NCBI RefSeq assembly: GCF_026241755.1
Contig: NZ_JAPJDA010000014.1
Span: forward strand, 62,001-126,000
Source: Salinimicrobium profundisediminis
GTDB lineage: Bacteria; Bacteroidota; Bacteroidia; Flavobacteriales; Flavobacteriaceae
DNA length: 64,000 nt
Direction: 5' to 3'
In this document: one piece after another, positions 749 to 46,855 of the stretch
How positions within the stretch are numbered: the stretch's first letter is position 1
Layout of the letters: each line of letters begins with the position of its first letter
Program-made: the position numbers and the translations under genes
The notes under the pieces: model-generated
What the model was told of the DNA's origin: nothing
What the model saw: only the letters and a program-made list of their open reading frames with translations
The model's database searches: none

Positions 749-3196
749 ATGTTCGTAGAAAAAAGAGGCGGCCGCAGAGAACCTATTATGTTTGACAAGA
801 TCACAGCCAGGATTAGAAAACTGTGCTATGGCTTAAATGAACTCGTTGACCCTGTAAAGGTGGCGATGCGGGTGATTGAAGGGCTTTATGACGGAGTTAC
901 CACCAGTGAACTTGACAATCTCGCAGCCGAAATTGCCGCTACAATGACCACTTCCCATCCCGATTATGCGAAACTGGCGGCAAGAATTTCAGTCTCTAAC
1001 CTACACAAGAATACAAAAAAGACATTTTCGGAAGTGATGACCGATCTTTACGAGTACGTAAATCCGCGTACCAATCAAAAGTCGCCACTTATTGCCGATG
1101 ATGTGTACGAGGTCATTCAGAAGAATAAAGAACTGCTTGATTCCACGATTATTTACAACAGGGATTTTCAGTATGATTACTTCGGATTTAAAACCCTGGA
1201 GCGCTCGTATCTTCTGAAGATAAACGGAAAAATTGCCGAAAGGCCTCAGCACATGCTTATGCGTGTTTCCGTAGGAATTCATCCCGATGACATGGAAGCT
1301 GCGATCGAGACCTATGAGCTCATGTCGAAGAAATATTTCACGCACGCCACTCCTACTCTTTTCAACGCCGGAACTCCGAAGCCACAGATGTCTTCCTGTT
1401 TCCTGCTCACCATGAAAGACGATAGCATTGACGGGATCTACGACACGCTGAAGCAGACTGCGAAGATCTCACAATCGGCCGGCGGAATTGGTTTGTCTAT
1501 CCACAACGTAAGAGCTACGGGTTCCTATATTTCAGGCACCAATGGTACTTCCAACGGGATCGTGCCTATGCTGCGGGTTTTTAATGACACTGCACGATAT
1601 GTCGACCAGGGTGGCGGAAAACGAAAGGGGTCTTTTGCCATTTATGTAGAACCCTGGCACGCTGATATTTTTGACTTCCTCGACCTGAAAAAGAACCACG
1701 GAAAAGAGGAAATGCGGGCCCGTGACCTCTTCTACGCGATGTGGGTCCCCGATCTTTTCATGAAACGTGTAGAAGAAAATGAAAGCTGGACGCTGATGTG
1801 TCCGCACGAATGCCCGGGACTTTACGACATTCACGGCGAAGAGTTCGAAGAACTTTATTTGAAATACGAAGCCGAAGGCAAAGGCCGAAAAAGCATTAAA
1901 GCCCGTGACCTGTGGGAAAAGATTTTGGAATCACAGATCGAAACCGGAACTCCGTACATGCTGTACAAAGATTCGGCTAACCGGAAATCGAATCAGCAAA
2001 ACCTGGGAACGATTCGTTCTTCAAATCTTTGTACCGAGATCCTGGAATACACCAGCGAAGATGAAGTAGCCGTTTGTAACCTTGCTTCTATTGCATTGCC
2101 AATGTTTATTAAGGGTAATGAATTTGATCATAAGGAACTCTTCAGGATCACTAAGAGAGTTACGAGGAATTTAAATAAAGTGATCGACAGGAATTATTAT
2201 CCGGTAAAGGAAGCCGAAAATTCTAATTTCAGGCACCGGCCTGTGGGGCTGGGAGTTCAGGGATTGGCAGATACTTTTATAAAACTCAGGCTACCTTTTA
2301 CTAGCGATGAAGCTAAAAAACTAAACCAGGAGATCTTTGAAACCCTTTATTTTGCTGCCGTGACCGCCTCTATGGAAATGGCTAAGGAAGCAGGCACCTA
2401 TTCTACCTATGAAGGTTCACCTATGAGCAAAGGCCAATTCCAGTTTAACCTTTGGGGGATCAATGATGAAGACCTTAGCGGCAGATGGGATTGGGCAAAG
2501 CTTAGAAAACAGGTGCTCAAAAATGGCGTTCGCAACTCACTTTTAGTTGCGCCAATGCCTACTGCTTCCACTTCCCAGATCCTTGGAAACAATGAAGCTT
2601 TTGAACCATACACTTCCAATATCTACACCCGCCGTGTGCTTTCGGGGGAATTTATCGTTGTCAATAAACACCTCCTGGAAGACCTGGTGGAAAGGAATCT
2701 GTGGACAGAAGATGTCAAAAATGCCATTTTACGATCCAATGGTTCTGTACAAAATATAGATGTCATTCCTGAAGATCTTAAGGAACTGTATAAGACAGTT
2801 TGGGAGCTCAGCATGAAGGATATTATCGATATGTCCCGTCACCGCGGTTATTTTATTGATCAGTCGCAGTCGCTCAACCTCTTCATGGAGAACGCGAACT
2901 ATTCCAAGCTCACCTCCATGCATTTCTATGCCTGGAAAAGCGGCCTTAAAACAGGAATGTATTACCTGCGCACCAAAAGTGCTGTAGATGCCATTAAATT
3001 CACTTTAGCAAAAGAGGAAAAGAAGCAGGAAATACCTGCGGAAAAAATTTCTGAAATACAGGTTTCCCCCGATGCCGAACCAGCATCCAAAAATGTCATT
3101 TTAGACGATGCTTCCATGTCACCTGAAGAGCTGCGTGCATTGATTGCACAATCTAAAGAAGCTGAAGGTGACGACTGTTTGATGTGCGGGAGTTAG
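749..3196 (+). CDS. nrdA: Class I ribonucleoside-diphosphate reductase alpha subunit
   Basis: This is the catalytic subunit that reduces ribonucleoside diphosphates to deoxy forms; 815 aa is typical of class Ia alpha chains. The N-terminus ([17 protein letters not shown]) begins an ATP-cone, so activity is probably controlled by ATP/dATP. Active-site landmarks are in order: Cys near residue 216 (MSSCFLL), NLCTEI near 428 (radical Cys and Glu), VCNLAS near 443 (redox partner Cys), the tyrosine pair MYYLRT near 737 for radical transfer, and the C-terminal CLMCGS pair that is re-reduced by thioredoxin/glutaredoxin. A linker rich in Glu/Lys/Pro precedes the tail. It follows nrdB and precedes a dNTPase gene. 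Two copies of the AAAATGNCATTTT motif lie inside it. Confidence 0.98.
2718..2730. repeat. AAAATGNCATTTT palindrome (in nrdA)
   Basis: Perfect copy with C at the centre, within codons reading V-K-N-A-I-L. Part of the dispersed motif family described in the findings. Confidence 0.6.
3090..3102. repeat. AAAATGNCATTTT palindrome (in nrdA)
   Basis: Perfect copy with T at the centre, within codons reading S-K-N-V-I-L-D, 372 bp after the previous copy in the same gene and in the same codon phase. Confidence 0.6.
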
Positions 3197-3410
3197 GTTG
3201 AGTTTTGAGAAAATGATTAAAAAAGAGTCTAGAAACTAGAATCTAGAGTCTAGACTTTAAAAAAATTTTAGATTATCTAAACGAATCAAGTCTTGGCTCT
3301 TGCTTCTAGAAGCGAAGCGATCCTGGTTCTTTTTCAAAATGATAGTTACTTTCTTGATCATTGTTTATTGCTCATTGTTTATTTTTGAAGCTTACTGAAA
3401 TAAATATTAA
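3197..3410. repeat. nrdA-dgt spacer with TCTAGA repeats
   Basis: The 214-bp spacer holds an inverted pair AGTCTAGA/TCTAGACT at 3226-3256 with further TCTAGA-like copies between the arms, then an A-run. Nearer dgt there is a direct repeat of CATTGTTTATT (about 3359-3382). No T-tract follows the inverted repeat on the plus strand, so it is not a clear terminator. No coding potential was seen. Confidence 0.5.
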
Positions 3411-4754: not shown

Positions 4755-4809
4755 TTTTTTGTATTTTGCAGAATAGCTTTCTTCGGAAGACATTTACCTA
4801 TATCCCCTT

Positions 4810-7647
4810 ATGAATAAACGATTACTTTTTGTACTTCCGGTCGTTCTGTTTGCTGCCGTTTTTGGTCTTTACCTGAGTTGTGAGAACAATGCACCTTCTG
4901 AAATTTCAGAATTAAGACAAAGACATGAGCATTTTTTGAAGCAGAACAAGCCCACCAAGGACAAGGGGTTTTCACGCCTCGAAAAAATTAAAAAAGGCCT
5001 GCCTCCAAAGAAATATTATGAGGAAATGGAGTATCTCACCATGAATCCTGCTTTGGGATATCCTGAACCCCATAAAGTAAGGGATTTGCACGAGCAACTT
5101 CAAAAACAGCGGCAAAGCAGGAGTTACATCAAAGCCCCCGGAGATAGTGAGCAGCACCCATGGCTCTCTCGCGGCCCCAACAATGTGGGAGGCCGTACAA
5201 GAGTATTATTATTTGACCCTAATGACACCTCGGGCAACCGGGTGTTTGCCGGTGCAATAAGCGGCGGCCTGTGGGTCAATGACAATATCACCCGCGAATC
5301 TTCTCCCTGGGAACAGGTAGAAGGTTTGCCTGCAAATTTGAATATATCCTGCCTTACGGTCGATCCGCGGAATTCTAATATCTGGTATGCAGGTACAGGA
5401 GAACAATATACCGGCGGGGACGTAGTGGGAACGGGCGTTTACAAAACCACCGATGGGGGCCAGACCTGGAATAAAGTTCTGGATGTAGAAGATTTTTCAG
5501 AATCGGGAAGCAGCACAAACATTCGGGCAATTGGGGGTGTCTATTACATCAATGACATAGAAGCCTGGGATAATGGCAGCAGCACCGAAGTCTTTATTGG
5601 AGTCTCTACTCACTTGTATGCCAATGCTCAAAATCCGCAGAATTTATTAGGCTTTTTTGAAAGAGGCCTGTACCAAAGTAAAGACGAAGGCGCTTCCTGG
5701 AACAAAGTCCTTGAAGAGGAATCTTTTAATGACTTTGAAACAGATGCGGCAGGGAATGCCTGGGTTTCCACAACCTATTCGCCGGGAGTGGAGAATTCTT
5801 TTGGCGGAAAGATCTTCAGGCGTGAAAAAGGTGCAAATACGAGCTGGTCTCTGGTGACCACCATTCCCAATGTTTATCGCACCGAGATAGAAGCTTCAGC
5901 CTTAAACCCTGATAAATTTTATATTCTTGCTGAAGACCAGTTTGAAGAAGCGTCGCTTTGGGTTACGACGAACGCTTTTCAAAATATTACACGGCTGAAT
6001 GAACCCAATGATGCCGATCTTGATATTCCTCCTGATGATTTTGCTAGGGGCCAGGCTTTTTATAATCTTATGATAGAATCTGATCCTACCAACGATGAAA
6101 TCATCTATGTTGGCGGAATAGACCTCTTCAGGTCAACTACCGGTGGTAATTCATGGGAACAGATCTCTAAATGGTCAGATAATGATAATCTTGATGAATT
6201 ACCTGTTTCCGAAGTCCATGCAGACCATCATGTGATGAGGTTTAAGCCCGGTAATACCAATCAGGCGATCTTTGGGCATGACGGCGGGGTTTCGTTTGCC
6301 AACGATCTTTCAGCAGCAAGCACTTCGAAAGTATTCATCACTCCCGAGACCGACTATATTACCACGCAATTCTATTCTGTTGCCGTGGCACCAACTTCTT
6401 TTGCAACGGGCGACTACTTTTTGGGAGGCACCCAGGATAACGGAACCCTGCTGATTGAAAGAGGGAACCCCACTTCTATAGGAATATTGGGTGGCGATGG
6501 CGCTCATTCCTTTTTTGACCAGGTAGACACCGAATACCTCATAGCCAATTTGGTATACAACGACCTTATTATTCTTTACAATTACGACAAAGATGGTTTT
6601 GCGCTTATTGCCAATAATGAGAACAGGGACGGATTTTTCATAAACCCTCAAGCCCTTGATTCCAATTTGGATATCCTGTTCTCAAACGGACCTGAAGGCG
6701 TGCTTTACAGGTATGATAACCTCACTCAACTTCCACTTTTAGGTGATGATGGCATTCAGCAAAATTCACCCATTGCGCCAAAAGTTTCTCTCAAAAATGC
6801 CCTTTTAGACAGTTCTATAAGTGCCCTCACCGTTTCCCCTTTTTCAACCCAAAGCAGCACGGTACTTCTGGGGCTTACCAATTCCAAACTCCTTAAAGTT
6901 GAAAATGCGCATGGCGCTCCTGAAAATGCTACGTGGAAGAAGATCACCGGTCCAGAATTCTTAGGAAGTATTTCGGATGTGGAATACGGTGAAACCCCAG
7001 ACGAAATCTATGTTACCTTTTACAATTACGGCGTAAAAAGTATATGGTACACTTCAAATGCCAATGCCACAAATCCTACCTGGACAAGTAAAGAAGGAAA
7101 CCTGCCTGACCTGCCCGTACTTTCTATTCTTCACAACCCGCTTAACAAAGACGAGGTAATTGTGGGAACAGAACTCGGAGTTTGGGCAACCGAAAATTTC
7201 ACCAGCAGCCAGCCTGTATGGGTGCAATCATACAACGGGATGAGTGATGTAAAGGTCACCGACTTAGATCTCAAAAAAGGCAATAATGTAGTCTATGCTG
7301 CTTCTTACGGGCGCGGCATCTTCTCTGGTCAATTTAAAACAGCTAAAGAAGAAGCAGAAGAACGCGGGGAAATGGTAGTTGAAGAGAACGTGATTATGGT
7401 CTATCCAACTATTTCTGGAGGAAATTATCAGATTGTATCGGGTGAGGATATAGAGGACATGCAGGCATTTGTTTACAACATCCAGGGAAAACTGATACAG
7501 GTTGTGAAGACCCCGCTTGAAGCAAATGAACCCATTGATGTGTATATTGTCACTGAAGCTCCCGGAGTTTACCTATTCAAGATCACGGGTGCCGGAAAAA
7601 CCGAAGTTCAGAAAGTGATCAAACTAAAAGACCTGGATCAATCTTAA
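4810..7647 (+). CDS. T9SS type A sorted beta-propeller (sortilin/BNR-like) protein
   Basis: A 945-aa exported protein of unknown substrate. It has an N-terminal hydrophobic segment ending YLSCEN, then Asp-box/BNR repeats such as TDGGQTWNK, KDEGASWNK and TTGGNSWEQ, as in sortilin/VPS10- and sialidase-type propellers. It ends in a roughly 80-residue domain (VYPTISGG...VYIVTEAPGVYLFKI...KVIKL) of the type A C-terminal signal family, which directs secretion and surface attachment through the type IX system. No sialidase Arg triad or Asp/Glu/Tyr set is evident, so it is probably an adhesin or binding protein. The Cys near residue 24 is reminiscent of a lipobox but lacks a good -3 residue. The stop overlaps the convergent DUF3078 gene by 4 bp. 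Confidence 0.85.
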   Translation: MNKRLLFVLPVVLFAAVFGLYLSCENNAPSEISELRQRHEHFLKQNKPTKDKGFSRLEKIKKGLPPKKYYEEMEYLTMNPALGYPEPHKVRDLHEQLQKQRQSRSYIKAPGDSEQHPWLSRGPNNVGGRTRVLLFDPNDTSGNRVFAGAISGGLWVNDNITRESSPWEQVEGLPANLNISCLTVDPRNSNIWYAGTGEQYTGGDVVGTGVYKTTDGGQTWNKVLDVEDFSESGSSTNIRAIGGVYYINDIEAWDNGSSTEVFIGVSTHLYANAQNPQNLLGFFERGLYQSKDEGASWNKVLEEESFNDFETDAAGNAWVSTTYSPGVENSFGGKIFRREKGANTSWSLVTTIPNVYRTEIEASALNPDKFYILAEDQFEEASLWVTTNAFQNITRLNEPNDADLDIPPDDFARGQAFYNLMIESDPTNDEIIYVGGIDLFRSTTGGNSWEQISKWSDNDNLDELPVSEVHADHHVMRFKPGNTNQAIFGHDGGVSFANDLSAASTSKVFITPETDYITTQFYSVAVAPTSFATGDYFLGGTQDNGTLLIERGNPTSIGILGGDGAHSFFDQVDTEYLIANLVYNDLIILYNYDKDGFALIANNENRDGFFINPQALDSNLDILFSNGPEGVLYRYDNLTQLPLLGDDGIQQNSPIAPKVSLKNALLDSSISALTVSPFSTQSSTVLLGLTNSKLLKVENAHGAPENATWKKITGPEFLGSISDVEYGETPDEIYVTFYNYGVKSIWYTSNANATNPTWTSKEGNLPDLPVLSILHNPLNKDEVIVGTELGVWATENFTSSQPVWVQSYNGMSDVKVTDLDLKKGNNVVYAASYGRGIFSGQFKTAKEEAEERGEMVVEENVIMVYPTISGGNYQIVSGEDIEDMQAFVYNIQGKLIQVVKTPLEANEPIDVYIVTEAPGVYLFKITGAGKTEVQKVIKLKDLDQS

Positions 7648-10399: not shown

Positions 10400-10437
10400 A
10401 AAAAACAAAGGTACATTTTGAAATTGTATTTTTGAAT

Positions 10438-10887
10438 ATGCAATTAATTTTTGACGACGTTTATTTTATGCGGAAGGCCCTTGAAGAGGCACAGCAGGCT
10501 TACGAAAAAGGGGAGATCCCGGTAGGGGTTGTGATTGTGGCTCAACAAAGGATCATTGCCCGCGGACACAATCTCACCGAACTGCTGAATGATGTCACAG
10601 CCCATGCCGAAATGCAGGCTATCACCTCGGCTGCGAACTTCCTTGGCGGAAAATACCTCCTGGATTGTACCATGTACGTGACTTTGGAGCCGTGCCAAAT
10701 GTGTGCCGGAGCCCTTTACTGGAGCCAGATCTCCAATTTGGTGTTTGCTGCCTCAGATCCTGAAAGGGGCTACAGAAGAATGGGAGGAAAACTTCACCCA
10801 AAAACGAAGGTCAAAAATGGCATTTTAGAAGAGGAAGCTTCGCAACTCCTGAAGCGGTTTTTTATTGAAAGAAGGAATTTGAATTAA
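10438..10887 (+). CDS. tadA: tRNA-specific adenosine deaminase / nucleoside deaminase
   Basis: A 149-aa zinc deaminase. HAEMQAI provides the zinc His and catalytic Glu, and PCQMCAGAL the two zinc cysteines. The overall length and the ALYWSQISNLVFAASDP segment match the TadA/guanine deaminase branch, whose best known role is converting A34 to inosine in tRNA-Arg(ACG). A guanine or cytosine deaminase cannot be fully excluded. I use the ATG giving MQLIFDD; a TTG two codons upstream is also in frame. A TATTTTTG sequence fitting the Bacteroidota -7 box (TAnnTTTG) sits at 10427-10434, but very close to the start. One copy of the palindromic motif lies near the 3' end. Confidence 0.88.
   Translation: MQLIFDDVYFMRKALEEAQQAYEKGEIPVGVVIVAQQRIIARGHNLTELLNDVTAHAEMQAITSAANFLGGKYLLDCTMYVTLEPCQMCAGALYWSQISNLVFAASDPERGYRRMGGKLHPKTKVKNGILEEEASQLLKRFFIERRNLN
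10814..10826. repeat. AAAATGNCATTTT palindrome (in tadA)
   Basis: Perfect copy with G at the centre, in codons V-K-N-G-I-L-E. Confidence 0.6.
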
Positions 10888-11625
10888 AAAATTCATGTTC
10901 TCTTCTGTTGCGAACTATGGAATTGGATTTTTTTTATATAGAATTCCTGTAAATGCAACTTCTGAAATATTCCCTACGGAATTTAATATTCCTGGTTACA
11001 TTCGACCCCTTCGGGGTCGTGAATGCAATCATTTATTCTATAAATGTTGGACCCCTTCGGGATCCTTTGGAAGCTGAAGCTTCCTGGGAAAGACACGCTT
11101 ATGCTCGCCCGTACAAAATTAGCAGTGCTAAGCATAATTAAAATTCAATTTTTTGAACCATACATGGGGTTGAAGAAAATCCTGAAGGATTTTTGACATT
11201 TTTTCAATCAAAAGAATCCCGAAGGGATTCCATATTTATTGATGATGAGCATAGACCTTTCGACCCCGACGGGGGTCGTACCAACATCACAGTAGGGCCG
11301 GTATACAGTGAAATAATAAATTCAAGAAAATTTGCAATCGTATTTCAGAATTTTGGATGTCCATATACCTTAATAAATAATGGGTCTATCTCTCCTGAAT
11401 CTGAAGTTCAGTTTCTCCTGGGCAAGATCACGGAGAATTTTCAGGGAAACACATTTTGAGATTTTACATTATGACTTATGCGGCGTTCGCTTATTTATTT
11501 ATTTACGCCCGAAAGTAAATTTCTCCGGGGCAAGCCCACGGAGCATTTTAGTGGAACACGTTTTCAAACTTTACAACATTTACTAACGAGGCAAGCCTCG
11601 GGGTATTTACCCTCCTATGAATAAA
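10888..11625. repeat. Non-coding hairpin cluster (REP-like or decayed repeat elements)
   Basis: About 740 bp without a credible gene. It holds a run of short stem-loops, mostly with GAA/TTC loops: ATTCC-CTAC-GGAAT (about 10968), CGACCCC-TTC-GGGGTCG (about 11006), GGACCCCTTCGGGATCC (about 11050), GGAAGCTGAAGCTTCC (about 11069), AAAATCCTGAAGGATTTT (about 11179), GAATCCCGAAGGGATTC (about 11214), CGACCCCGACGGGGGTCG (about 11259), CTCCGGGGCAAGCCCACGGAG (about 11522) and GAGGCAAGCCTC (about 11589). Open frames here are short and low in complexity. It resembles a pile-up of small intergenic repeat elements; no transposase or terminal inverted repeats were seen. Confidence 0.6.
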
Positions 11626-11662
11626 AAATCCTCTTCAAAAATGACATTTTTGAAGAGGATTT
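11626..11662 (-). terminator. Intrinsic terminator of the GH16 gene
   Basis: Perfect 18-bp inverted repeat around a single A, followed on the minus strand by TTTTTTATT. It lies just after the stop of the minus-strand GH16 gene and ends the laminarin locus. The inner 15 bp are a perfect AAAAATGACATTTTT copy of the dispersed motif. Confidence 0.85.
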
Positions 11663-11680
11663 CCGGCTAATTCAACCTGC

Positions 11681-12572: not shown

Positions 12573-12615
12573 AAAAAAGGGGTCTCAAAAATGTCATTTT
12601 AGAGACCCCTTTTTG
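12573..12615. terminator. Bidirectional hairpin terminator between GH3 and GH16
   Basis: About 20-bp arms around a central T with one mismatch, and A/T runs on both sides (AAAAAAGGGGTCTC ... GAGACCCCTTTTT). It lies directly after the GH3 stop on the minus strand. The core is AAAAATGTCATTTT, a member of the dispersed motif. Confidence 0.8.
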
Positions 12616-30237: not shown

Positions 30238-30807
30238 TTATTGGGCGGCGCGGTAATCAAATTCCTGACCACCTACAGAGATACCTGCCATGGCTCCGGC
30301 TTTAGGCATAATTGCTACTCCGGCACCATTTTCGAAAGTAATGGCTCCACCAGCTCCTTCATCCCAGATCACTGCAGATGCACTACCTCCAAATTCGAAA
30401 TCTCCTTCTTTAAATTTATTTAGAGCTTCCTGGGTTTCAAAAACTATAAGCTCTCTAAAGGCTTTTCCTCCAAATTGGAATCCTACGTCAATTTGTCTAA
30501 GCTCTGTATATCCGGCAACCTGTCCGTTTTCATACACAATACCGTTTCCTGCTGCCCCACCAAGGATCCATGCTCCTTTCCCTACATTGGGAAAAATGGC
30601 ATATCCGGCTGCATCATTGAGCATAGTCTCAAGTCTTGGATTTGCTCTCATAAATGCCATTTTAGCATCCATGGCATCAGATTTTATTACTTCGCGCTTC
30701 TCCATGTCCATGATTCTCTCCTGGTCCTGGGCAGTCACCTGTCCAGAGGCAAGAAGTAACATCAGAACTACTAGTCCGCTGTACAATTTGTAAGAAATTC
30801 TTTTCAT
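30238..30807 (-). CDS. SYLF/Ysc84 lipid-binding domain protein, exported
   Basis: A 189-aa protein with signal peptide ending ASGQVTAQ. The rest is a SYLF domain: DAAGYAIFPNVGKGAWILGGAAGNGIVYENG, VDVGFQFGGKAFRELIVFE-like core (here IDVGFQFGGKAFREL), and a closing AGISVGGQEFDYR. SYLF domains bind phospholipids in eukaryotes; bacterial exported members are of unknown role. Full length for the family. Transcribed alone, convergent with the SDR gene. Confidence 0.87.
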   Translation of the reverse strand: MKRISYKLYSGLVVLMLLLASGQVTAQDQERIMDMEKREVIKSDAMDAKMAFMRANPRLETMLNDAAGYAIFPNVGKGAWILGGAAGNGIVYENGQVAGYTELRQIDVGFQFGGKAFRELIVFETQEALNKFKEGDFEFGGSASAVIWDEGAGGAITFENGAGVAIMPKAGAMAGISVGGQEFDYRAAQ

Positions 30808-30969: not shown

Positions 30970-32271
30970 CTAATCAGCAATACTGGATATAGCCATTTGC
31001 CTTAACTTCCAGGCGGTTTCATCCTGGGTGGCACCCTGGGTTTGCTTCATAATGATACCGATGAGATTTTCTTTGGGATCGGCAAAGTACTGGGTATTGA
31101 AGTAACCTCCCCAGTCAAAAGTACCCTCACTTCCTAACCCGCCGGTGCGCACTCCTTCTTTGTTGAGAACAGAAAATGCCAGCCCGTAATCCTTATTTTG
31201 ATCTTTATAGAGTTCTTGTGCCTGGTCTTGCATAATAAGATCTACAGTGGTTCTGCTTAAGATCCTGTTTCCGTCAAGTTCACCTCCATTGATATACATT
31301 TGGAGGAAACGGGCATAATCTTCTGCTGTACTGGTGAGCCCTGCCCCGCCCGAAAAGAAGCTTTTTGCACCCTTTACAGGATATTCGGGATCGTAAAATG
31401 TTACAGGAAAATTCTGCCATTCTCCATTTACTTTGTGCTGCACACTAACCAGGCGATCGTTCTTATCATCATCATTGATATAAAACTGGGTATCCTGCAT
31501 TCCTAGCGGATCAAAAATCCTTTCCTCTAAAAACTTGTCGAAAGGTTGACCTGAAACCTTTTCTATAAAATATCCCAGCACATCAAGGCTTTCACCGTAA
31601 TGCCATTCTTCACCGGGAATCGCATATAGCGGCAAACCTGCAAGCTTTTTCACATTTTGGGCAATGCTTATCTCCTTTGTTGTATATAAATCTACCACTC
31701 CGGCCTTTGTGTATATCTTTTGTATTCTTTCATCAGAATCTATTCTTCCATATCCCAGGCCTGAGGTATGGGTGAGCAGTTGGCGGATGGTGATTTCCTT
31801 ACCTGCAGGTTTGGTTGTGTAGGTAGTATCTTCCGCATTAAATGTAGCTATGATCTGAGGGTCTTTGAATTCAGGAATATATTTTGAAATGGGGTCGTCT
31901 AACCTGAATTTTCCTTCTTCCCATAACATCATTACCGCAGTTGAAGTTATTGCTTTAGTTTGTGATGCAATTCTAAAAATGTCATTTTTCTTCAACACTT
32001 TGCCCCCGGCATCGGCTTTTCCGAAGCTTTTATGATAAACGATATTCCCGTTTTTTGCTATTAGAACAACAGCTCCCGGAATTTCTTTTTCTGAAATTGC
32101 TTCAGTAATCATCTTATCAATCTTTTCCAGCCGTTCTTCACTAATCTCTATTTCTTCTTCGGAAGTTTGCTGAACAAGCGGGGAGTTCGAGTGATTTTGA
32201 GCTGATACCAAGTTGGCAACCAGAAGAAGCGCCAGAATAATCTTAGCCTGAAGTGTAGTCTTTAATAACAT
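30970..32271 (-). CDS. Serine hydrolase, class C beta-lactamase/esterase family
   Basis: A 433-aa exported serine hydrolase (signal peptide ending ANLVSAQ). The S-x-x-K motif is SQTK (in RIASQTKAITSTAVMMLWEEG), the second motif is YGES where YxN is usual, and the late GGLGSEGTFDWGGYF segment is typical of the penicillin-binding/EstB-like branch. It could be an esterase, a peptidase or unrelated to antibiotics; a true beta-lactamase is unlikely. It follows the GH5 gene by 87 bp on the same strand at the end of the xyloglucan locus, so a role in removing acetyl groups from the glycan is possible but only inferred from position. One palindromic motif copy lies next to the SxxK codons. Confidence 0.82.
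   Translation of the reverse strand: MLLKTTLQAKIILALLLVANLVSAQNHSNSPLVQQTSEEEIEISEERLEKIDKMITEAISEKEIPGAVVLIAKNGNIVYHKSFGKADAGGKVLKKNDIFRIASQTKAITSTAVMMLWEEGKFRLDDPISKYIPEFKDPQIIATFNAEDTTYTTKPAGKEITIRQLLTHTSGLGYGRIDSDERIQKIYTKAGVVDLYTTKEISIAQNVKKLAGLPLYAIPGEEWHYGESLDVLGYFIEKVSGQPFDKFLEERIFDPLGMQDTQFYINDDDKNDRLVSVQHKVNGEWQNFPVTFYDPEYPVKGAKSFFSGGAGLTSTAEDYARFLQMYINGGELDGNRILSRTTVDLIMQDQAQELYKDQNKDYGLAFSVLNKEGVRTGGLGSEGTFDWGGYFNTQYFADPKENLIGIIMKQTQGATQDETAWKLRQMAISSIAD
31975..31989. repeat. AAAAATGNCATTTTT palindrome
   Basis: Perfect 15-bp copy with T at the centre on the plus strand; on the coding minus strand it reads K-K-N-D-I-F-R. Confidence 0.6.
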
Positions 32272-35381: not shown

Positions 35382-35410
35382 GGGGCCCAAAAATGGCATT
35401 TTTGGACCCC
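35382..35410 (-). terminator. Hairpin between GH3 and GH29
   Basis: 14-bp arms with one mismatch around a perfect AAAAATGGCATTTTT core, just after the GH3 stop. No strong T-run follows on the minus strand, so it may only attenuate. It is the third terminator-like hairpin built on the dispersed motif. Confidence 0.6.
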
Positions 35411-35426
35411 CTTCCTGAAGTCATTC

Positions 35427-37679
35427 TTATTTAACCTCAACAACTACTTCCTGAAGAATATTTCTTGAAGAATTACCCAGCTTTAGTGTATAAGTTCCCG
35501 GTTCTACAGTCCATTTTCCAGAATTCATGTCGTAATAAGCCAGTTCCTTCACAGGAACATCAATGGTTACCATTTCGGTTTCACCTTTAGGTATCTTTGT
35601 TTTCTGAAAACCCTTAAGTTCCTGGGCCGCACGCTCTACTTTAGAATCTGATTTTGAAACATAAAGCTGCACTACTTCCTTTCCATCAAATTCTCCGATG
35701 TTCTTAACATCTACTGAAACCTTAATGGTTTCATCTCCTGCATAAGCTTCTTTCTTATCAACTTTGGCATTAGAAAATTCAAAATTTGTATAGGAAAGTC
35801 CGTACCCAAAAGGATAAAGCGGCTCAATGTTTTTGGTATCAAACCAACGGTAACCCACTAAAATTCCTTCATCGTAGGTAGCCACATCGCCTCCAGGAAA
35901 GCTGTTATTGGCATGAGCAGGAGAATCCTTAAGATCTTTAGGCATGGTCCAGGGAAGTTTTCCAGAAGGATTTACCTTTCCAAGAAGCACATCGGCCAGG
36001 GCATTCCCGCCTTCAGAACCATTGAACCAGCTCCACACGAGCGTAGAAGTTTGTTGTTCGATATTTTCAATATCAAAAGGAGCACCGGCAATCATCACCA
36101 CGATAGTATTAGGATTGGCCTCCATTACCTTCGCAATCAATTCTTCCTGTCCAAAAGGCAGGTCAAGGCTTGCACGGTCTGAAGCTTCAGTTTCATAATC
36201 ACGGTTAGATCCCGCAAAGATGATGGTAAGATCAGAATTCTTTGCAGCATTGACGGCTTCTTCCAACAGCTTTGGATCCAGCTCGTCGATGGTTACAGGT
36301 CCACTCAGGGTAATATCTCCAAATTTAGCTTTGTCTGTTTTTGAATACCGCTCCAGGTAACCCTGGGCATGGGTGATTTTTACAGATTCTGGCAATCTAT
36401 TTTGAAGTCCTTCCAGAGGAGTCACCTCCCGTTTTGTCTTTACTCCGGCTCCAAATCCTCCCAGCGCATTTTTCTTTGTAGCGTTGTCCCCAATTACCGC
36501 AATGCTTTTTACGCCTTCAAGATTTAAAGGCAGCATATTTTTGTCATTTTTGAGTAGTATTACAGATTCTGAAGCAATATTATAAGCATCTTTAAAGTGT
36601 TGCTCAAAATCTCTGTTACCCTTAGCACGACCTGTAGTATCAATGCTTTTGATGTTATACATTAATCTTAGAACCCTTCTCACGTGTTTGTCTACTTCTT
36701 CTTCAGCAAGTTCTCCAGATTTTACAGCTGCGATAAGCGGATCGGCAAAATAGAATTCATTAAAAGGACCAGGGGTTCCCATCTCCACATCGGCTCCGGC
36801 CTTTAAAGCTTTTACTGTGCTGTGAATAGCGGCCCAGTCTGAGATCACAATTCCCTTAAAGCCCCATTCATCTCTTAGTACATCCTGAAGCATATATTCG
36901 CTTTCGTTTAAATAATCTCCACGAAATTTATTATAAGCTCCCATTACAGTGTAGGCGTGGGCATCTTTAATTGCGGCTTCAAATGCGGGAAGGTAGATCT
37001 CTCTTAGAGTACGTTCATCCATTTGAACATCTACAGTCCCACGATTGGTTTCCTGGTTGTTGGCTGCATAGTGTTTGATACTTACTGCTACATCATTCTC
37101 CTGAACCCCCACAATGTAAGGAACAGTGATTTGAGTGTTTAAAAATGGATCTTCAGAGAAATATTCATAAGTACGTCCACCCAGCGGAGTCCTAATAATG
37201 TTAAAAGCAGGAGCTAATAAAACATCTTTATTCCTGTCACGCGCCTCTGCGCCTATAACATCTCCAAAAGTGTGCGCCAGCTGTGGATTCCAGGTAGCCG
37301 AAAGACCTGCACCGGCCGGTAAATAAGTTGCAAAATCGTTATCCCATCCTGCAGGAGCCCAGGAGTCGCGGGAAATCTCCTCACGTATACCCAGCGGCCC
37401 ATCGGCCATGGTTAGTTCGGGGATTCCCAGACGGGGAACGCCAGATGTGGCGAACATACTCGTCCCGTGCAGCATTCCTGCTTTTTCTTCAAGAGTCATT
37501 TGTGAGATCAATTTGGTGATCTCCTCTTCGTGGTCCATACTCATAGGTTTGCCCTCAAAAATGTCCTTTTCCTGAGAAGTTTCTGCAACAGCAATATCTC
37601 CTGCCTCCTTGCTATCATTACAAGCCGTGAAGCTTAAAATGCTGAAAATGCCCACTAATGGTAAAAATCTGTTTTTCAT
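35427..37679 (-). CDS. GH3 beta-glucosidase lipoprotein (xyloglucan locus)
   Basis: About 750 aa from MKNRFLPLVGIFSILSFTACND, a lipoprotein signal; I prefer this Met over one 23 codons upstream, which would overlap the preceding gene. It contains the GH3 N-domain with VSIKHYAANNQE, the nucleophile Asp in GIVISDWAAIHST near residue 280, the C-domain (SVILLKNDKNMLPL, IIFAGSNRDYETEASDR) and a C-terminal fibronectin III-like domain (VKNIGEFDGKEVVQLYV). The likely role is removal of beta-1,4-glucose from the unsubstituted end of xylogluco-oligosaccharides. It follows another GH3 gene by only 7 bp. Confidence 0.9.
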   Translation of the reverse strand: MKNRFLPLVGIFSILSFTACNDSKEAGDIAVAETSQEKDIFEGKPMSMDHEEEITKLISQMTLEEKAGMLHGTSMFATSGVPRLGIPELTMADGPLGIREEISRDSWAPAGWDNDFATYLPAGAGLSATWNPQLAHTFGDVIGAEARDRNKDVLLAPAFNIIRTPLGGRTYEYFSEDPFLNTQITVPYIVGVQENDVAVSIKHYAANNQETNRGTVDVQMDERTLREIYLPAFEAAIKDAHAYTVMGAYNKFRGDYLNESEYMLQDVLRDEWGFKGIVISDWAAIHSTVKALKAGADVEMGTPGPFNEFYFADPLIAAVKSGELAEEEVDKHVRRVLRLMYNIKSIDTTGRAKGNRDFEQHFKDAYNIASESVILLKNDKNMLPLNLEGVKSIAVIGDNATKKNALGGFGAGVKTKREVTPLEGLQNRLPESVKITHAQGYLERYSKTDKAKFGDITLSGPVTIDELDPKLLEEAVNAAKNSDLTIIFAGSNRDYETEASDRASLDLPFGQEELIAKVMEANPNTIVVMIAGAPFDIENIEQQTSTLVWSWFNGSEGGNALADVLLGKVNPSGKLPWTMPKDLKDSPAHANNSFPGGDVATYDEGILVGYRWFDTKNIEPLYPFGYGLSYTNFEFSNAKVDKKEAYAGDETIKVSVDVKNIGEFDGKEVVQLYVSKSDSKVERAAQELKGFQKTKIPKGETEMVTIDVPVKELAYYDMNSGKWTVEPGTYTLKLGNSSRNILQEVVVEVK

Positions 37680-37686
37680 ATGTATC

Positions 37687-39855
37687 TTATTTTTGTACAG
37701 GTAATTTTTTAGTTTGATAAATTTTATCTGAAGCGCCACCCACCTCAATTTCTATGTTTCCGTTTTCAAGTTGAAATTGTTGTGTTGCGACATTCCAGTA
37801 TTTAAGATCTTCAGCCTTCAGCAGAACTTCAACTGTTTTAGTTTTTCCCGCCGGAACCAGCACACGCTTAAAACCCTTTAATTCTTTTACAGGTCTTTCT
37901 ACGGAAGAATTTAAGTGCTTTACATAAAGCTGCACCACTTCCTCGCCATCCATTTTTCCGGTATTCCTAATCTTCACTTTTACGCTTGCAGTTTCACCAT
38001 CCCGAAGGATGGTTTTATCTACCGCAAGATTTTCGTATGAGAAACTGGTATAACTTAATCCATGGCCAAAGGCATAGAGTGGGTCACCCTTAAAGTACAT
38101 ATACGTCCTTCCATTCCTGATGTTGTAATCCATCAAGGGCGGAAGATCTGTAATGCTTTTCACCCATGTTTGCGTAAGCCTCCCTGCCGGATTGTAATCT
38201 CCGAAAAGTACATCTGCCAAACCATTTCCAAGCTCCTGACTGTTCTGTGCCATATGCACAATTGCCGGAACATTTTCCTGTGTCCAGTTAATGGCATAAG
38301 GGAAACTACTTATGAGTACTGCTACAGTTCTTGGATTCGCCTGATGCACAACTTTTATGAGATCTTCGTATTCAAGGTTCATGGATTGACGATCTACAGA
38401 TTCTTTGCCTTCACTCGGCACAGGACAATCTGCCCAACCGGCATCACAAACGGGGTGATTTCCAACAAGGACAATGGCCACATCTGCCTTCCTGGCTATT
38501 TCGGCAGCCTTGCCATCTGCATTATTTTTGGCAGTCAAAATCTCCACATTACTTCCTACTTTATTTCTAATGCCCTCCAGTGGAGTCACCCGGTACGGCG
38601 GAGTACCGCTATACCAGTCCAGTAAAACTTCATCTGCTCTATTACCAATTATCGCGATAGATTTGATCTTGTTTTTATTTAGTGGCAAAAGCCCCTCTTT
38701 TGGATCATTTTTCAGCAATACGATTGATTTTTGTGTAGCTTCGAGTGCCAGCTGCTTATGAGCTTCGGTAGTCCAGGGATCTATAGTGTCTTTTCCGGAG
38801 CCAATTTTCGCGTACGGATTTCCTTCCGAAGGATCCAGCATGCCCAGCCTCAGCATCACGCGGTAATTTCCGCGAAGGACTTCATCGATGTCGGCTTCGG
38901 TTAAGTAACCAAGGGCGATTGCGCCGTAAACTGCTTCTGTAAATTCATCCAGGAACTGATTAATGCCGGCTTTGATCACGGCAGCGGCTCCTAGGTACTT
39001 ATCTTCGTAATATTTGTGGTCTGAAAGCAATAGCTTGAAAGCGCCACCGTCTGTGCAAATGATCCCATTCTGTCCCCATTCCTCTATAGTAATCTTTTTG
39101 AGCATGGGATGCACGGTAGCGGGAATACCATTTACCTTATTGTAAGCGGCCATATACGCGCGGGAACCTCCTTCTAAAATGCCCTTTTTGAAGGGTAAGG
39201 CGTAATATTCTCTCCACAATCGCTCATCAAAGTCTGAAGAAGTGTAGGTACGGCCATCTTCATTGGAGTTTGCGAGGAAGTGCTTCATCAAAGAAGCGGT
39301 TTGCCAGTAATTGGGATCGTTTCCCTGCAGTCCATTTACAAAAGCGACCGTAAGCTCACCTGCCAAAAATGCGTCTTCGCCATAACTTTCTTCGGTGCGG
39401 CCCCAGCGGGGATCACGTGCGAGATCTGCATTTGGTGCCCGCACTACAAGTCCGCCGTGGTTGTATTTCTGAAAGGCGTAGCGGGTCTCAAGACCTTCAG
39501 CTGCCGCTACTTTTTGGATCAATTCACGATCCCAGGTTTCCCCGAGTCCGTACGCCTGCGGAAAAGTTGTAGTGACCTGAACTTCCCGGTTTTTGCCTTC
39601 CCAACCGCCGGGACCTCCAAGTGCAAGCCCGTGAAGGCCTTCAACATGACCTGTTCCTTTGACTCCAAGCCGCGGCACTGCCGGATTCGTACTTAGAGCA
39701 CTTACCTTTTCATCAAGCGTCATGAGAGACAGGAGGTTATCTATTCGCTCCTCTACACCCAACTCCGGATTCTGGAACGGGTATTCAAACGCCTGTTGTG
39801 CCCACAGCGGAAGTGCCGAAAAGAATGTAAGAATGTAAAACAGGTGCTTTCTCAT
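37687..39855 (-). CDS. GH3 glycosidase (beta-glucosidase or beta-xylosidase branch)
   Basis: A 722-aa exported enzyme (signal peptide MRKHLFYILTFFSALPLWAQ). It has a GH3 N-domain (MTLDEKVSALSTNPAVPRLG, VVRAPNADLARDPRWGRTEESYGED), the nucleophile Asp in GIICTDGGAFKLL near residue 268, a GH3 C-domain and a fibronectin III-like C-terminus (IRNTGKMDGEEVVQLYVKH). The CTDGGA context and N-domain resemble the xylosidase/broad-specificity branch more than BglX, so it need not duplicate the adjacent GH3. The two differ clearly in sequence, hence not a recent tandem copy. Spacing to the GH97 gene is 26 bp. Confidence 0.87.
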   Translation of the reverse strand: MRKHLFYILTFFSALPLWAQQAFEYPFQNPELGVEERIDNLLSLMTLDEKVSALSTNPAVPRLGVKGTGHVEGLHGLALGGPGGWEGKNREVQVTTTFPQAYGLGETWDRELIQKVAAAEGLETRYAFQKYNHGGLVVRAPNADLARDPRWGRTEESYGEDAFLAGELTVAFVNGLQGNDPNYWQTASLMKHFLANSNEDGRTYTSSDFDERLWREYYALPFKKGILEGGSRAYMAAYNKVNGIPATVHPMLKKITIEEWGQNGIICTDGGAFKLLLSDHKYYEDKYLGAAAVIKAGINQFLDEFTEAVYGAIALGYLTEADIDEVLRGNYRVMLRLGMLDPSEGNPYAKIGSGKDTIDPWTTEAHKQLALEATQKSIVLLKNDPKEGLLPLNKNKIKSIAIIGNRADEVLLDWYSGTPPYRVTPLEGIRNKVGSNVEILTAKNNADGKAAEIARKADVAIVLVGNHPVCDAGWADCPVPSEGKESVDRQSMNLEYEDLIKVVHQANPRTVAVLISSFPYAINWTQENVPAIVHMAQNSQELGNGLADVLFGDYNPAGRLTQTWVKSITDLPPLMDYNIRNGRTYMYFKGDPLYAFGHGLSYTSFSYENLAVDKTILRDGETASVKVKIRNTGKMDGEEVVQLYVKHLNSSVERPVKELKGFKRVLVPAGKTKTVEVLLKAEDLKYWNVATQQFQLENGNIEIEVGGASDKIYQTKKLPVQK

Positions 39856-39881
39856 GTTTTGTAATTTTCAAGAAGCAGCAA

Positions 39882-41882: not shown

Positions 41883-41953
41883 GATATTCTATTCATTACC
41901 GCCGATTTCTGAATAAAGATTTACTTAAAAATCAGCGGGGTTTTAATTATTGA

Positions 41954-44353: not shown

Positions 44354-44386
44354 TTTTATAGTTTTATGGTTTAGGGGATTCATTTT

Positions 44387-46855
44387 CTATTCTAAATTTA
44401 TGGTGGTGGTAGCTATTTGAAGACTATTTGCAGTGGCAGTCACTTCTACCGGCCCGGCTTCTTTTCCGGCACGGATGATCACCAGAACTTTTCCGCTTAA
44501 AGCTGAATGGGAGCTACCCTTAAAAGATTCGTGACTCGTAGGGTCGCCGCTGGCAACTCCGGCTATCTCTGCATTGCCTGTCACTTCAAAATGAATAACA
44601 TTATTAGCCCGGGGTGCTATAGTTCCGTCTTCATCTGTGATATTTACAGTAATAAATGACAGGTCCTGTCCATCTGCTTTAATTGTTTGCCTGTCGGGCT
44701 GCATTTTTAACATTGCAGGTTCTCCGGCGGTTTTTACTTCTCTCTCAAGAACTACCTGTCCGTCCTTTCTGGAAACAGCCTTCAAAATGCCCTTTTTGAA
44801 AGGAAAGCGCCACATCACGTGCAGGTCATCTCCCTGCTTTTTCTTAGTGCCCATAGATTCTCCGTTCAGGAATAGCTCAACCTCGTCGGCATTATTATAA
44901 TAGGCCCAAACATCTACAGTCTGTCCTTCCTCCCAGTTCCAATGCGGCAAAAGATGCAGGACAGGTTCATTGGTCCATTCACTTTTGTACATGTAATAAG
45001 AATCCTTCGGAAATCCTGCGAGATCAACTATTCCGAAGTAAGAACTTCTTGAGGGCCAGCCGTATGGTGTTGGCTCCCCAAGATAATCAAAACCTGTCCA
45101 GATGTAAAATCCTGAAAGGAAATCGTGTTTTTTGATGATCTTCCAGGTAGTTTCATGAGTAGAGCCCCATGGCGTTCTCACCTGGTCAAATGCTGAAACA
45201 GTATTGTCTGCATTACCACCGTCAAAAGGCAGGTCCCAGCGCACCGGCCAGATCTTTGTAGTATCTGAAGGAAATTCATAATATCCTCTTGTAGCCAGCG
45301 CCGAAGTAGTTTCGGTGGCTATAAAAGGCGTATTGGGGAAGTTCACCTGATGTTTTGGGTAAGTTTGATGGGCATAATTGTACCCGATAAGATCTAAAGC
45401 TCCCGATCCTGCAAGAGCATTGGGCTGCTGCGGCTCATCAAACTGTAAGGTCACGTCGTCTTCATTGGTGTGCACTGGCGGATTCATTCCGGCGGTGACA
45501 GGGCGGGTAGGATCAACTTCTTTGGTGATTCTCGCCAGCTCCCTTCCTATTTCGGCACCTCGCTCACTCCACTGCTCTGGGACCTCATTGCCAATACTCC
45601 ATATAAAAATACTTGGGTGATTGCGGTCGCGAAGGAGCATATCTTTCATATCCCGCTCGTGCCATTCATCCCAAAAATTGCTGTAAGCGTTTTCTGTTTT
45701 GGCTCTTTCCCACATGTCAAAAGATTCGGCCATCACAATAAAACCCATTTTATCTGTTAGTTCCAGAAGTTCGGGAGCCGGTGGGTTATGAGCAGTTCTA
45801 ATTCCGTTGACGCCCATTTCCTTCATGATCTCCAGTTGTCGTTCAATGGCTCTTTTGTTTACGGCGGCACCTAAAGGCCCCAGGTCATGATGGTTGTTTA
45901 CACCTTTGATCTTCACCTGTTCACCATTCAGAATAAAACCTTTTTCAAGATCGAATTTAAAATCCCTGATCCCAAATTGCGTGGTGTATTGATCAATGAC
46001 CTCTCCTTCAACCTTAATTCTTGTTACTGCGGAATAGAGCTGCGGATCTTCTGTGGACCATAACTGAGGTTGTGAAACCGTAATTTGCTGAGTTACTTCT
46101 GAAGTATCCTGCGCCTGAATCTCAAATTCTGCAGTAACTGAAGCAACCTCCTGATCTTTGTAATACAAAGAGGTCTCTAAAATGCCATTTTTGACACCGC
46201 TGTATTTGTTGGCAAGCCTTACCTCAACCTGAACCAAAGCACTGTCTCTGGATACTTTTGGAGTAGTAACAAATGTTCCCCATTGAGGTACATGTAACTT
46301 ATCTGTTTGTTCCAGCCATACATTTCTATAAATCCCAGAACCTGAATACCAGCGGGAATTTGGTTGATCTGCATTGTTGACCTTTACCAGAATTTCATTT
46401 TGCTCATCCCCGTAATTGAGGTACGGAGTAAGATCATATTGAAACCCGATGTAACCGTTGGGCCTGTTGCCCAAATAACTTCCGTTGATCCAGATTTCAC
46501 TGTCCTGGTAAACGCCATCAAAAGTTACTGCAGTTAGTTTGGTACTGTCTTTTGCTGCAAGGGTAAAACTTTTTTTGTACCAGCCAAGGCCGCCGGGAAG
46601 TGCCCCGCCGCCAACTCCTGCAGGGTGTTCAGGGCTAAAATCTCCTTCAATACTCCAGTCGTGCGGCACATTGAGGGTTCTCCATTGAGCTTCAGAAGAA
46701 GCCATTTTTGAAGAGTCGCCAAGAAAGAACTGCCAGTCTTCATTGAAGGAAATTTTTCTTTCTACCTGCCGGGCTTCAGAAGAAGAGTTTTCACAGGAAT
46801 AAAGAAAGCTGAAAAATAAAATTAGTGCAGGAAAAATATACCTTTTTTGAAGCAT
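44387..46855 (-). CDS. GH2 beta-galactosidase lipoprotein
   Basis: It probably removes the beta-1,2-galactose that caps xylose in xyloglucan side chains. The 822-aa lipoprotein (FSFLYSCENSSS) has a jelly-roll N-domain (WRTLNVPHDWSIEGDF, WYKKSFTL), an Ig-like domain, and a TIM barrel with the acid/base Glu in IWSIGNEVPEQW near residue 425 and the nucleophile Glu in FIATETTSA near 515. The C-terminus adds Ig-like domains (DEDGTIAPRANNVIHFEVTG). These motifs match GH2 beta-galactosidases, although beta-mannosidase or beta-glucuronidase activity cannot be fully excluded. It follows the glycan-binding lipoprotein gene after 208 bp. Confidence 0.9.
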   Translation of the reverse strand: MLQKRYIFPALILFFSFLYSCENSSSEARQVERKISFNEDWQFFLGDSSKMASSEAQWRTLNVPHDWSIEGDFSPEHPAGVGGGALPGGLGWYKKSFTLAAKDSTKLTAVTFDGVYQDSEIWINGSYLGNRPNGYIGFQYDLTPYLNYGDEQNEILVKVNNADQPNSRWYSGSGIYRNVWLEQTDKLHVPQWGTFVTTPKVSRDSALVQVEVRLANKYSGVKNGILETSLYYKDQEVASVTAEFEIQAQDTSEVTQQITVSQPQLWSTEDPQLYSAVTRIKVEGEVIDQYTTQFGIRDFKFDLEKGFILNGEQVKIKGVNNHHDLGPLGAAVNKRAIERQLEIMKEMGVNGIRTAHNPPAPELLELTDKMGFIVMAESFDMWERAKTENAYSNFWDEWHERDMKDMLLRDRNHPSIFIWSIGNEVPEQWSERGAEIGRELARITKEVDPTRPVTAGMNPPVHTNEDDVTLQFDEPQQPNALAGSGALDLIGYNYAHQTYPKHQVNFPNTPFIATETTSALATRGYYEFPSDTTKIWPVRWDLPFDGGNADNTVSAFDQVRTPWGSTHETTWKIIKKHDFLSGFYIWTGFDYLGEPTPYGWPSRSSYFGIVDLAGFPKDSYYMYKSEWTNEPVLHLLPHWNWEEGQTVDVWAYYNNADEVELFLNGESMGTKKKQGDDLHVMWRFPFKKGILKAVSRKDGQVVLEREVKTAGEPAMLKMQPDRQTIKADGQDLSFITVNITDEDGTIAPRANNVIHFEVTGNAEIAGVASGDPTSHESFKGSSHSALSGKVLVIIRAGKEAGPVEVTATANSLQIATTTINLE
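46179..46191. repeat. AAAATGNCATTTT palindrome (in GH2)
   Basis: Perfect copy with C at the centre on the plus strand; on the coding strand V-K-N-G-I-L-E, the same peptide as in tadA. Confidence 0.6.

What the first reader, a model, noticed from the sequence alone, without database searches (positions are those of the whole stretch)
2718..46191. Dispersed palindromic motif AAAATGNCATTTT, strongly over-represented
I found 11 perfect copies of this 13-mer (starts 2718, 3090, 10814, 11638, 12588, 28037, 28446, 28577, 31976, 35390, 46179); most extend to CAAAAATGNCATTTT(T/A)GA. At about 40% GC the chance expectation for 64 kb is about 0.02 (hand calculation from base frequencies). Near copies with one mismatch occur at about 6795, 30652, 37557, 39177, 44785 and 57367. 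The centre base is free (A, C, G and T all seen), as in a dimeric protein site. It occurs in eight coding positions on both strands and in three hairpins. It could be a nucleoid or chromosome-organising site, a DNA-uptake signal, or a repair/recombination site. I know of no described function.
Basis: partly seen in the sequence, partly recalled or inferred. Interest (0 to 1): 0.72.

Follow-up and report, generated by a model that had tools for sequence, protein, structure and literature searches.

The report
Genus-specific genome-wide palindromic DNA tag
A flavobacterium and its close relatives carry hundreds of copies of one symmetric DNA site that evolution keeps almost letter for letter inside and between genes, most likely as a tag by which the cell recognises its own DNA; which protein reads it is unknown.

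Summary
All 11 perfect copies are present (shuffle mean 0.05). The whole genome holds 460 against 3 for the reversed control. Eight congeners hold 118-424, three hold 0-34. In 393 family genomes of 236 other genera the maximum is 20, and those 20 look like chance.

The 13-mer is the core of a symmetric site of about 41 bp, NCATTTT-TGR-V-A(CC|GG)T-n-TTTT on each side, in coding and intergenic copies alike. In coding copies the outer arms show no excess pairing, so it looks like a duplex-DNA site for a dimer, not an RNA hairpin. In five congeners 32 of 46 aligned site-species pairs keep the core, against 9-24% for matched controls. Sites arise by point mutation, are densest between convergent genes and are not confined to origin or terminus.

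Best reading (0.40): a palindromic DNA-uptake (self-DNA) signal, a new variant of USS/DUS. ComEC is intact in all nine motif-rich genomes. Of three motif-poor ones, one has a decayed comEC and one (incomplete) a sub-threshold match, but one, G007, has it intact, which counts against. Main rival: a chromosome-organising site. No reader protein is identified.

The parts
2718..2730 (.). perfect core site, coding (ribonucleotide reductase large subunit), reads K-N-A-I-L
   Evidence: present in 6 of 6 motif-rich congeners compared, absent in G120, G007 and 4 of 4 outgroup loci there
3090..3102 (.). perfect core site, coding, in a length-variable C-terminal linker of the reductase; absent in the 6 motif-rich congeners compared
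10814..10826 (.). perfect core site, coding (K-N-G-I-L)
   Evidence: kept in 4 of 4 aligned motif-rich congeners
11638..11650 (.). perfect core site at the apex of a 12-pair extended hairpin, intergenic
12588..12600 (.). perfect core site at the apex of a terminator-like hairpin, intergenic; in congeners the arms differ while the core is kept in 2 of 3
28037..28049 (.). perfect core site, coding; absent in 5 of 5 aligned congeners
28446..28458 (.). perfect core site, coding; kept in 4 of 5 aligned congeners
28577..28589 (.). perfect core site, coding; kept in 5 of 5 aligned motif-rich congeners and in G120
31976..31988 (.). perfect core site, coding (Pfam Beta-lactamase family protein); kept in 1 of 3
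35390..35402 (.). perfect core site at the 5' edge of an alpha-L-fucosidase ORF, hairpin-extended; kept in 2 of 3
46179..46191 (.). perfect core site, coding (glycoside hydrolase family 2 protein); kept in 3 of 3
6794..6806 (.). one-mismatch copy AAAATGCCCTTTT
30651..30663 (.). one-mismatch copy
37558..37570 (.). one-mismatch copy AAAATGTCCTTTT
39176..39188 (.). one-mismatch copy AAAATGCCCTTTT
44784..44796 (.). one-mismatch copy AAAATGCCCTTTT
57368..57380 (.). one-mismatch copy

Best explanation
The motif is the core of a symmetric duplex-DNA recognition site of about 41 bp that one genus of Flavobacteriaceae keeps in hundreds of copies. I think it most likely marks self DNA for natural transformation: a palindromic uptake signal. 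A surface or periplasmic dimer would bind incoming DNA at the site, the flanking A/T tracts would help it bend, and recombination of imported tagged DNA would spread and preserve copies. SHOWN: enrichment, genus restriction, extended symmetric consensus, strong positional conservation at the sampled sites with free centre and changing flanks, gain by point substitution, preference for convergent and tandem intergenic DNA, and intact comEC in all nine motif-rich genomes.
For: 460 copies versus 3 control. Genus-restricted; 7 of the 9 motif-rich genomes could be put in a reductase tree and form one group, 100/100. Extended half-site in 94 coding and 101 intergenic copies, without excess arm pairing at +10 to +13 in coding copies. 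Core kept in 32 of 46 site-species pairs versus 9-24% for same-GC controls; in reverse, 32 of 37 aligned sites of these relatives are present in own (p from 2e-3 to 5e-6 per species). Third codon positions under coding cores 131 of 148 identical versus 56.6% overall. Density per 10 kb: convergent 11.1, tandem 5.8, divergent 2.0, coding 0.70; the terminator association is known for USS/DUS (PMC1852404, passages). ComEC intact in 9 of 9 motif-rich genomes; in motif-poor G120 a syntenic remnant in several frames. Of 7 G120 sites with long alignments to motif-rich DNA, 6 have the perfect core there, and G120 flanks are poorer (mean -3.1 versus +9.9). Riemerella columbina (same family) prefers its own DNA, and its authors left the signal open (PMC7965970, section 16).
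Against: G007 has intact comEC and DprA but only 34 copies, 11 of them on one integron-like contig, so comEC does not predict copy number. DprA is also intact in G120. The G120 flank deficit relative to G007 is not significant (p 0.15). One perfect copy per 8.8 kb is sparse compared with USS/DUS, and known USS/DUS are not palindromic (recalled). No receptor found; competence in this genus not demonstrated. A second, unrelated genus-wide motif, TTCCGAAGAAA, is an alternative candidate for an uptake signal. G126 (0 copies, ComEC match under the cut-off, no DprA) is 74% complete, so its absences are weak.
Confidence: 0.4

Rival explanations
1. A chromosome-organising or nucleoid site: a sequence-specific dimer (condensin loader, architectural or insulator protein) binds the roughly 41-bp site several hundred times per chromosome, bends it through the flanking A/T tracts and partitions the nucleoid.
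For: Symmetric site with A/T tracts at +-16-20 in coding and intergenic copies; spread over the sampled G128 chromosome (99 sites in 39 samples of 20 kb); high positional conservation, which suits a site that works where it stands; divergent promoter regions are the poorest intergenic class.
Against: Known chromosome sites are widely conserved across families (recalled), whereas this one is enriched in one genus of 237 sampled and varies from 19 to 460 between congeners that are at least 99% complete. No origin or terminus pattern. HU/IHF family matches (PF00216) number two to three in every genome, without relation to copy number; other DNA-binding families were not searched.
Confidence: 0.27
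2. A HIP1-like highly iterated palindrome: copies accumulate through biased mismatch repair around a methylated subsite, with or without a function of their own.
For: Dispersed palindrome in coding and non-coding DNA, lineage-specific, gained by point mutation, like cyanobacterial HIP1 (PMC4390886, passages).
Against: The core is 12 fixed letters plus degenerate outer preferences (A(CC|GG)T, T tract) that a methylase-plus-repair bias at a short subsite does not predict; of 34 ATGNCAT in the window only 11 are the full core. Methylation could not be tested and no methylase search was made.
Confidence: 0.09
3. An RNA element: the apex of intrinsic terminators or a processing hairpin, selected in transcripts.
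For: 27 sites in 24 kb of convergent intergenic DNA; several with 10-14 extra stem pairs.
Against: 96 of 184 sites in the context count are coding. In coding copies the arms at +10 to +13 pair no more than their composition predicts while the same half-site preferences persist on each side. In a terminator the arms change while the core is kept (12588).
Confidence: 0.05
4. Binding sites of an ordinary global transcription regulator, for example of a metal-responsive type with 7-1-7 palindromes (resemblance recalled).
For: Palindrome with a free centre base; genus-restricted.
Against: Divergent (promoter-only) regions are the poorest intergenic class, 7 sites in 35.7 kb versus 27 in 24.3 kb convergent, although 7 is not fewer than the 4.3 that a uniform spread over all DNA would give; more than half of the sites are in coding sequence; within complete ORFs only 2 of 81 lie within 60 nt of a stop and 3 of a start.
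Confidence: 0.05

Closest known systems
DNA uptake signal sequences of Pasteurellaceae (USS) and Neisseriaceae (DUS)
   Same: Hundreds of dispersed copies, coding and intergenic, enriched where genes end and in terminators, lineage-specific; flanking A/T tracts as in the Haemophilus USS (recalled).
   Different: Perfect-core palindrome with a free centre; Bacteroidota; lower density (1 per 8.8 kb); uptake function untested; no receptor known.
HIP1 of cyanobacteria
   Same: Dispersed over-represented palindrome in coding and non-coding DNA; function debated.
   Different: Longer, AT-rich, interrupted at the centre, with extended degenerate arms; genus-level restriction; no methylase link tested.
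MatP/matS, SlmA, Noc and ParB/parS chromosome sites (recalled)
   Same: Palindromic duplex sites of 13-16 bp read by dimers, several per chromosome.
   Different: Many more copies, found in samples all round the chromosome including the regions where GC skew changes sign, and not conserved across the family.
REP/BIME/REPIN palindromes (recalled)
   Same: Repeated palindromes where genes end.
   Different: About half of the copies are inside genes, compared cases arise by point mutation, and only the core and degenerate flanks, not a mobile unit, are shared (a tandem array and cassette repeats are exceptions).

Membership tests
DNA uptake sequence (USS/DUS) | Short motif hugely over-represented in the host genome relative to control and to other genera | tested here: met
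   460 versus 3 reversed control; maximum 20 in 393 genomes of 236 other genera, and those look like chance
DNA uptake sequence (USS/DUS) | Dispersed in coding and intergenic DNA, frequent in terminators | tested here: met
DNA uptake sequence (USS/DUS) | Host carries an intact DNA-import machinery (ComEC, DprA) | tested here: met
   ComEC and DprA intact in 9 of 9 motif-rich genomes; but both are also intact in motif-poor G007. Other import genes not searched
DNA uptake sequence (USS/DUS) | DNA carrying the motif is taken up or transforms preferentially | not testable with these tools
   needs an uptake competition experiment
DNA uptake sequence (USS/DUS) | A receptor that binds the motif | not tested
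   no candidate identified
HIP1-type iterated palindrome | Associated orphan methyltransferase recognising an internal subsite | not tested
   no methylase search or methylome made
matS-type macrodomain site | Confined to the terminus region | tested here: not met
   sites in 32 of 39 samples throughout the G128 chromosome
ParB/parS-type centromere | Clustered near the replication origin | tested here: not met
   origin placed only by GC skew
Transcription-regulator operator set | Concentrated in promoter regions | tested here: not met
   divergent regions 2.0 per 10 kb versus convergent 11.1
Intrinsic terminator / RNA hairpin element | Arms pair in all copies | tested here: not met
   coding copies show no excess pairing at +10 to +13

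The most novel reading that the evidence does not exclude
A palindromic 'address label' for self DNA in Bacteroidota, read as duplex by a dimeric uptake receptor of a pilus-independent import machine, and borrowed by integron cassettes: on one G007 contig nine of ten attC-like repeats found carry the perfect core, so that cassettes would be preferentially imported by members of the genus.
Probability: 0.2. Interest if true: 0.85.

Novelty: new variant of a known kind. Interest (0 to 1): 0.72.

Why it matters
Riemerella, in the same family, is naturally competent without recognisable pilus homologues, and R. columbina prefers its own DNA; its authors looked for a signal among k-mers of up to 10 bases and listed A/T-rich words, leaving the question open (PMC7965970 section 16; PMC8459023 passages). 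If this site is an uptake signal, it is the first strong candidate I have seen for Bacteroidota, it makes self-recognition there testable with one synthetic duplex, and it would show that uptake signals can be dyad-symmetric. If it is a chromosome-organising site instead, it is a lineage-specific architecture element with hundreds of copies. Either way, 12 letters that are held at most sampled places, protein-coding ones included, need a reader protein; my paper searches turned up no description of it.

Tried and rejected
Terminus, origin or macrodomain confinement: G128, 39 samples of 20 kb; 38 sites in the 20 samples that start at 1 to 1,700,001 and 61 in the other 19, no gradient that follows the skew changes. 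RNA hairpin and promoter-operator readings: disfavoured. Gene-end site inside genes: not supported (orthologous sites of several species are counted separately there). HU/IHF copy number: no relation. A palindrome of comparable enrichment in the motif-poor congeners G007 and G120: none in 440 and 420 kb, but weaker ones exist (GGTGATCACC 10 against 1.0 in G007, CTGAANNNNNTTCAG 13 against 2.2 in G120), not followed. TTCCGAAGAAA as part of the same site: not positioned relative to the palindrome. Rfam on the window: no match. Similar palindromes in other family members, 80 loci of up to 22.5 kb with those under 15 kb skipped: mostly A/T words; a few others at 3-5 copies (L017, L059, L065, L092) were not followed, L028 was. 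Published description: no paper holds the literal motif, and searches listed none that describes it. Mobile-element depletion and gene-content comparison were not done (whole genomes were not available as files).

Limits. Gene calls are home-made (ORFs, in later calls scored by codon usage), so labels near gene edges are uncertain. Site-species pairs are not independent: 17 distinct own sites, 9 kept in all aligned congeners, 4 in none, 4 mixed. The test used 5 of the 8 motif-rich congeners and only the regions fetched; in the motif-poor ones own sites are kept in 0 of 3 (G007) and 1 of 5 (G120). The tandem array at L100:3700-5400 was dropped but not nor in the flank score built.

Full report
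WHAT WAS CLAIMED AND WHAT IS THERE. All 11 exist at the stated starts; 100 dinucleotide shuffles give a mean of 0.05 and a largest value of 1. With up to one mismatch there are 20 against 1.04. The window is contig 7, positions 62001-126000, of a 4.04-Mb assembly in 101 contigs, with 460 copies against 3 for the reversed pattern. The nearest named relatives by the ribonucleotide reductase gene are Gillisia and Christiangramia (Flavobacteriaceae, which may leave out very near records); the genus itself was not named by the tools.

DISTRIBUTION. In the 12 genomes of the genus the counts are 460 (own), 424, 225, 207, 201, 191, 164, 121, 118, 34 (G007), 19 (G120) and 0 (G126, a 74% complete assembly), against 0-4 for the control. 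In 397 family genomes of 237 genera, own and three congeners included, the maximum outside the genus is 20 (G230), then 14. The 20 sites of G230 have poor flanks (mean flank score -8.3; random positions -11.8; sites of the motif-rich species +9.9), and the 3 with a long alignment to sampled motif-rich DNA lack the motif there. So the enrichment belongs to one genus of those sampled. A reductase tree puts the seven motif-rich genomes that could be included in one group (100/100) with G120 and G007 outside; the gene was not found in G128 and G126, and only as a 32-base match in G124.

ANATOMY. From 195 sites of six motif-rich genomes (94 coding, 101 intergenic) the half-site reads N-CATTTT-T-G-R-V-A-S-S-T-n-T-T-T-T on each side. 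At +11 to +14 ACCT occurs 38 times and AGGT 37 times in 372 half-sites, against about 1.5 per position in the background: both orders of the strong pairs are accepted. The total is about 41 bp with A/T tracts 16-20 bp from the dyad. In coding copies the arms pair at +10, +11, +12, +13 in 0.23, 0.23, 0.32, 0.37 of sites; worked by hand from the same table, base composition alone predicts about 0.32, 0.32, 0.28, 0.32. In intergenic copies the values are 0.46, 0.55, 0.41, 0.48 against about 0.33, 0.41, 0.30, 0.33, because some lie in terminator hairpins. This argues for recognition of duplex DNA by a symmetric protein. The centre is G or C in 127 of 195. Among 67 one-mismatch copies in 440 kb of the own genome, 52 changes fall at half-positions 0, 4 and 5 of the AAAATG half and 7 at 2 and 3.

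CONSERVATION. In pairwise alignments at 75-84% identity, own sites are kept in G128 10 of 14, G129 6 of 8, G123 4 of 7, G127 6 of 10 and G122 6 of 7 (32 of 46 together); random same-GC 12-letter controls are kept in 9-24%. In reverse, 32 of 37 aligned sites of these relatives are present in own. In the motif-poor G007 and G120 own sites are kept in 0 of 3 and 1 of 5. At coding sites without the tandem array, third codon positions under the core are identical in 131 of 148 cells against 56.6% overall. The centre base and the hairpin arms change while the core stays (12588, 35390). Four of 17 distinct own sites are found in no aligned congener, so there is also gain: the core at 28037 is one substitution from the G128 state, that at 31976 one from the G127 state, and 3090 lies in a linker where the six motif-rich congeners compared have a gap. 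The site at 2718 needs a change of the codon that is ATG in G120, G007 and most outgroup loci.

CONTEXT. Over 1.56 Mb of six genomes the density per 10 kb is 11.1 in convergent, 5.8 in tandem, 2.0 in divergent intergenic DNA and 0.70 in coding DNA (27, 54, 7 and 96 sites). In tandem gaps 65% of 54 are nearer to the upstream stop. Against a uniform spread over all DNA, convergent and tandem classes are in excess (expected 2.9 and 11.1), divergent is not depleted (4.3), coding is (165.7). In G128, a single-contig genome, 39 samples of 20 kb hold 99 sites: 38 in the 20 samples that start at 1 to 1,700,001 and 61 in the 19 from 1.75 Mb on, a mild asymmetry without origin or terminus confinement.

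LINK TO COMPETENCE. ComEC (PF03772) is intact in all nine motif-rich genomes and in G007; in G120 the gene lies in the same neighbourhood but only as fragments in several frames, and in the incomplete G126 the match is under the cut-off. The own comEC frame itself holds two copies of the motif. DprA (PF02481) is found in 11 of 12, not in G126. Of G120's 19 sites, seven have long alignments to sampled motif-rich DNA: six (L264, L265, L267, L268, L269, L275) have the perfect core there, one (L274, 70% identical to its best match) a one-mismatch form; L263 has a short alignment with the core. G120 flanks average -3.1, better than the chance sites of G230 (p 0.008) and poorer than +9.9 in the motif-rich species. 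G007's 18 sites outside recognised cassettes average 0.5 (p 0.0009 against G230), and the three with long alignments (L280, L284, L289) have the core there. So some sites are older than the motif-rich clade. Erosion in G120 after loss of import is an attractive reading, but G120 does not differ significantly from G007 (p 0.15), which has intact comEC and few copies; expansion in the clade alone explains the numbers equally well.

INTEGRON-LIKE ARRAY. Contig 15 of G007 (L128) is a 15-kb array of small genes separated by repeats of about 125 bp with inverted arms that resemble integron attC sites (judged by eye). Of ten proteins tested, two have Pfam matches, an IS110-family transposase at the edge and a helix-turn-helix, antitoxin-like protein; no integrase was seen. 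Of ten such repeats found by a pattern, nine have the perfect core and the tenth one mismatch. The repeat arm, with up to two mismatches, also occurs once in own, three times in G123 and twice in G128, and 13 times in G007.

INTERPRETATION. Genus restriction, dispersion in genes and terminators, point-mutation gain, strong maintenance and intact import genes match an uptake signal most closely; dyad symmetry, sparse density and the G007 exception are the weak points. A chromosome-organising site would explain the positional conservation as well or better. I give 0.40 and 0.27. Papers: USS in terminators, PMC1852404 (passages); DUS dialects, PMC3630211 (passages); HIP1, PMC4390886 (passages); Riemerella competence, PMC7965970 (passages; section 16 whole) and PMC8459023 (passages). 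Features of matS, parS, SlmA, Noc, REP and the Haemophilus A/T tracts are recalled.

Noticed in passing
whole genus; own genome and G128 samples: A second, non-palindromic genus-wide motif, TTCCGAAGAAA: 142 forward and 158 reverse copies in own against 10 and 9 for the control, enriched in 11 of 12 genus members (not G126), comEC-broken G120 included. No strand bias by replichore in G128; its 10-mer is kept at 5 of 9 places in G128 and 3 of 18 in four other congeners.
   Followed up: partly
L028 and L188-L207 (genome G130, MAG labelled Cytophagaceae SAT51): 295 copies of TTTGGCNNNNGCCAAA (control 0) with related GC-rich palindromes of variable spacing; 17 of 28 sampled copies in coding DNA: another lineage-specific dispersed palindrome family.
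   Followed up: partly
L100 3752-5160 (own genome, contig 3): Tandem array of about 124-bp repeats, many units carrying the palindrome or a variant (five perfect); a related stretch is in G128.
   Followed up: partly
L128 (G007 contig 15): Integron-like cassette array whose attC-like repeats carry the motif in 9 of 10; 8 of 10 proteins tested have no Pfam match.
   Followed up: partly
L230 8732-9564 (G120 contig 11): comEC present only as a decayed remnant in a conserved neighbourhood.
   Followed up: partly
G128 samples (L129-L167): The 10-mer GTGAATCCTA occurs 42 times against 0.8 expected, with overlapping 10-mers at 40-48 copies: a longer repeat, perhaps a CRISPR array; not looked at.
   Followed up: no
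window 46192-64000: No perfect copy in the last 17.8 kb of the window, only two one-mismatch copies (57368, 59399), in a stretch of large minus-strand genes; recently acquired DNA or chance.
   Followed up: no
G126: Listed in the genus but with no copy of the palindrome, no excess of TTCCGAAGAAA, no DprA match and only a sub-threshold ComEC match; incomplete (74%), possibly a different lineage.
   Followed up: no
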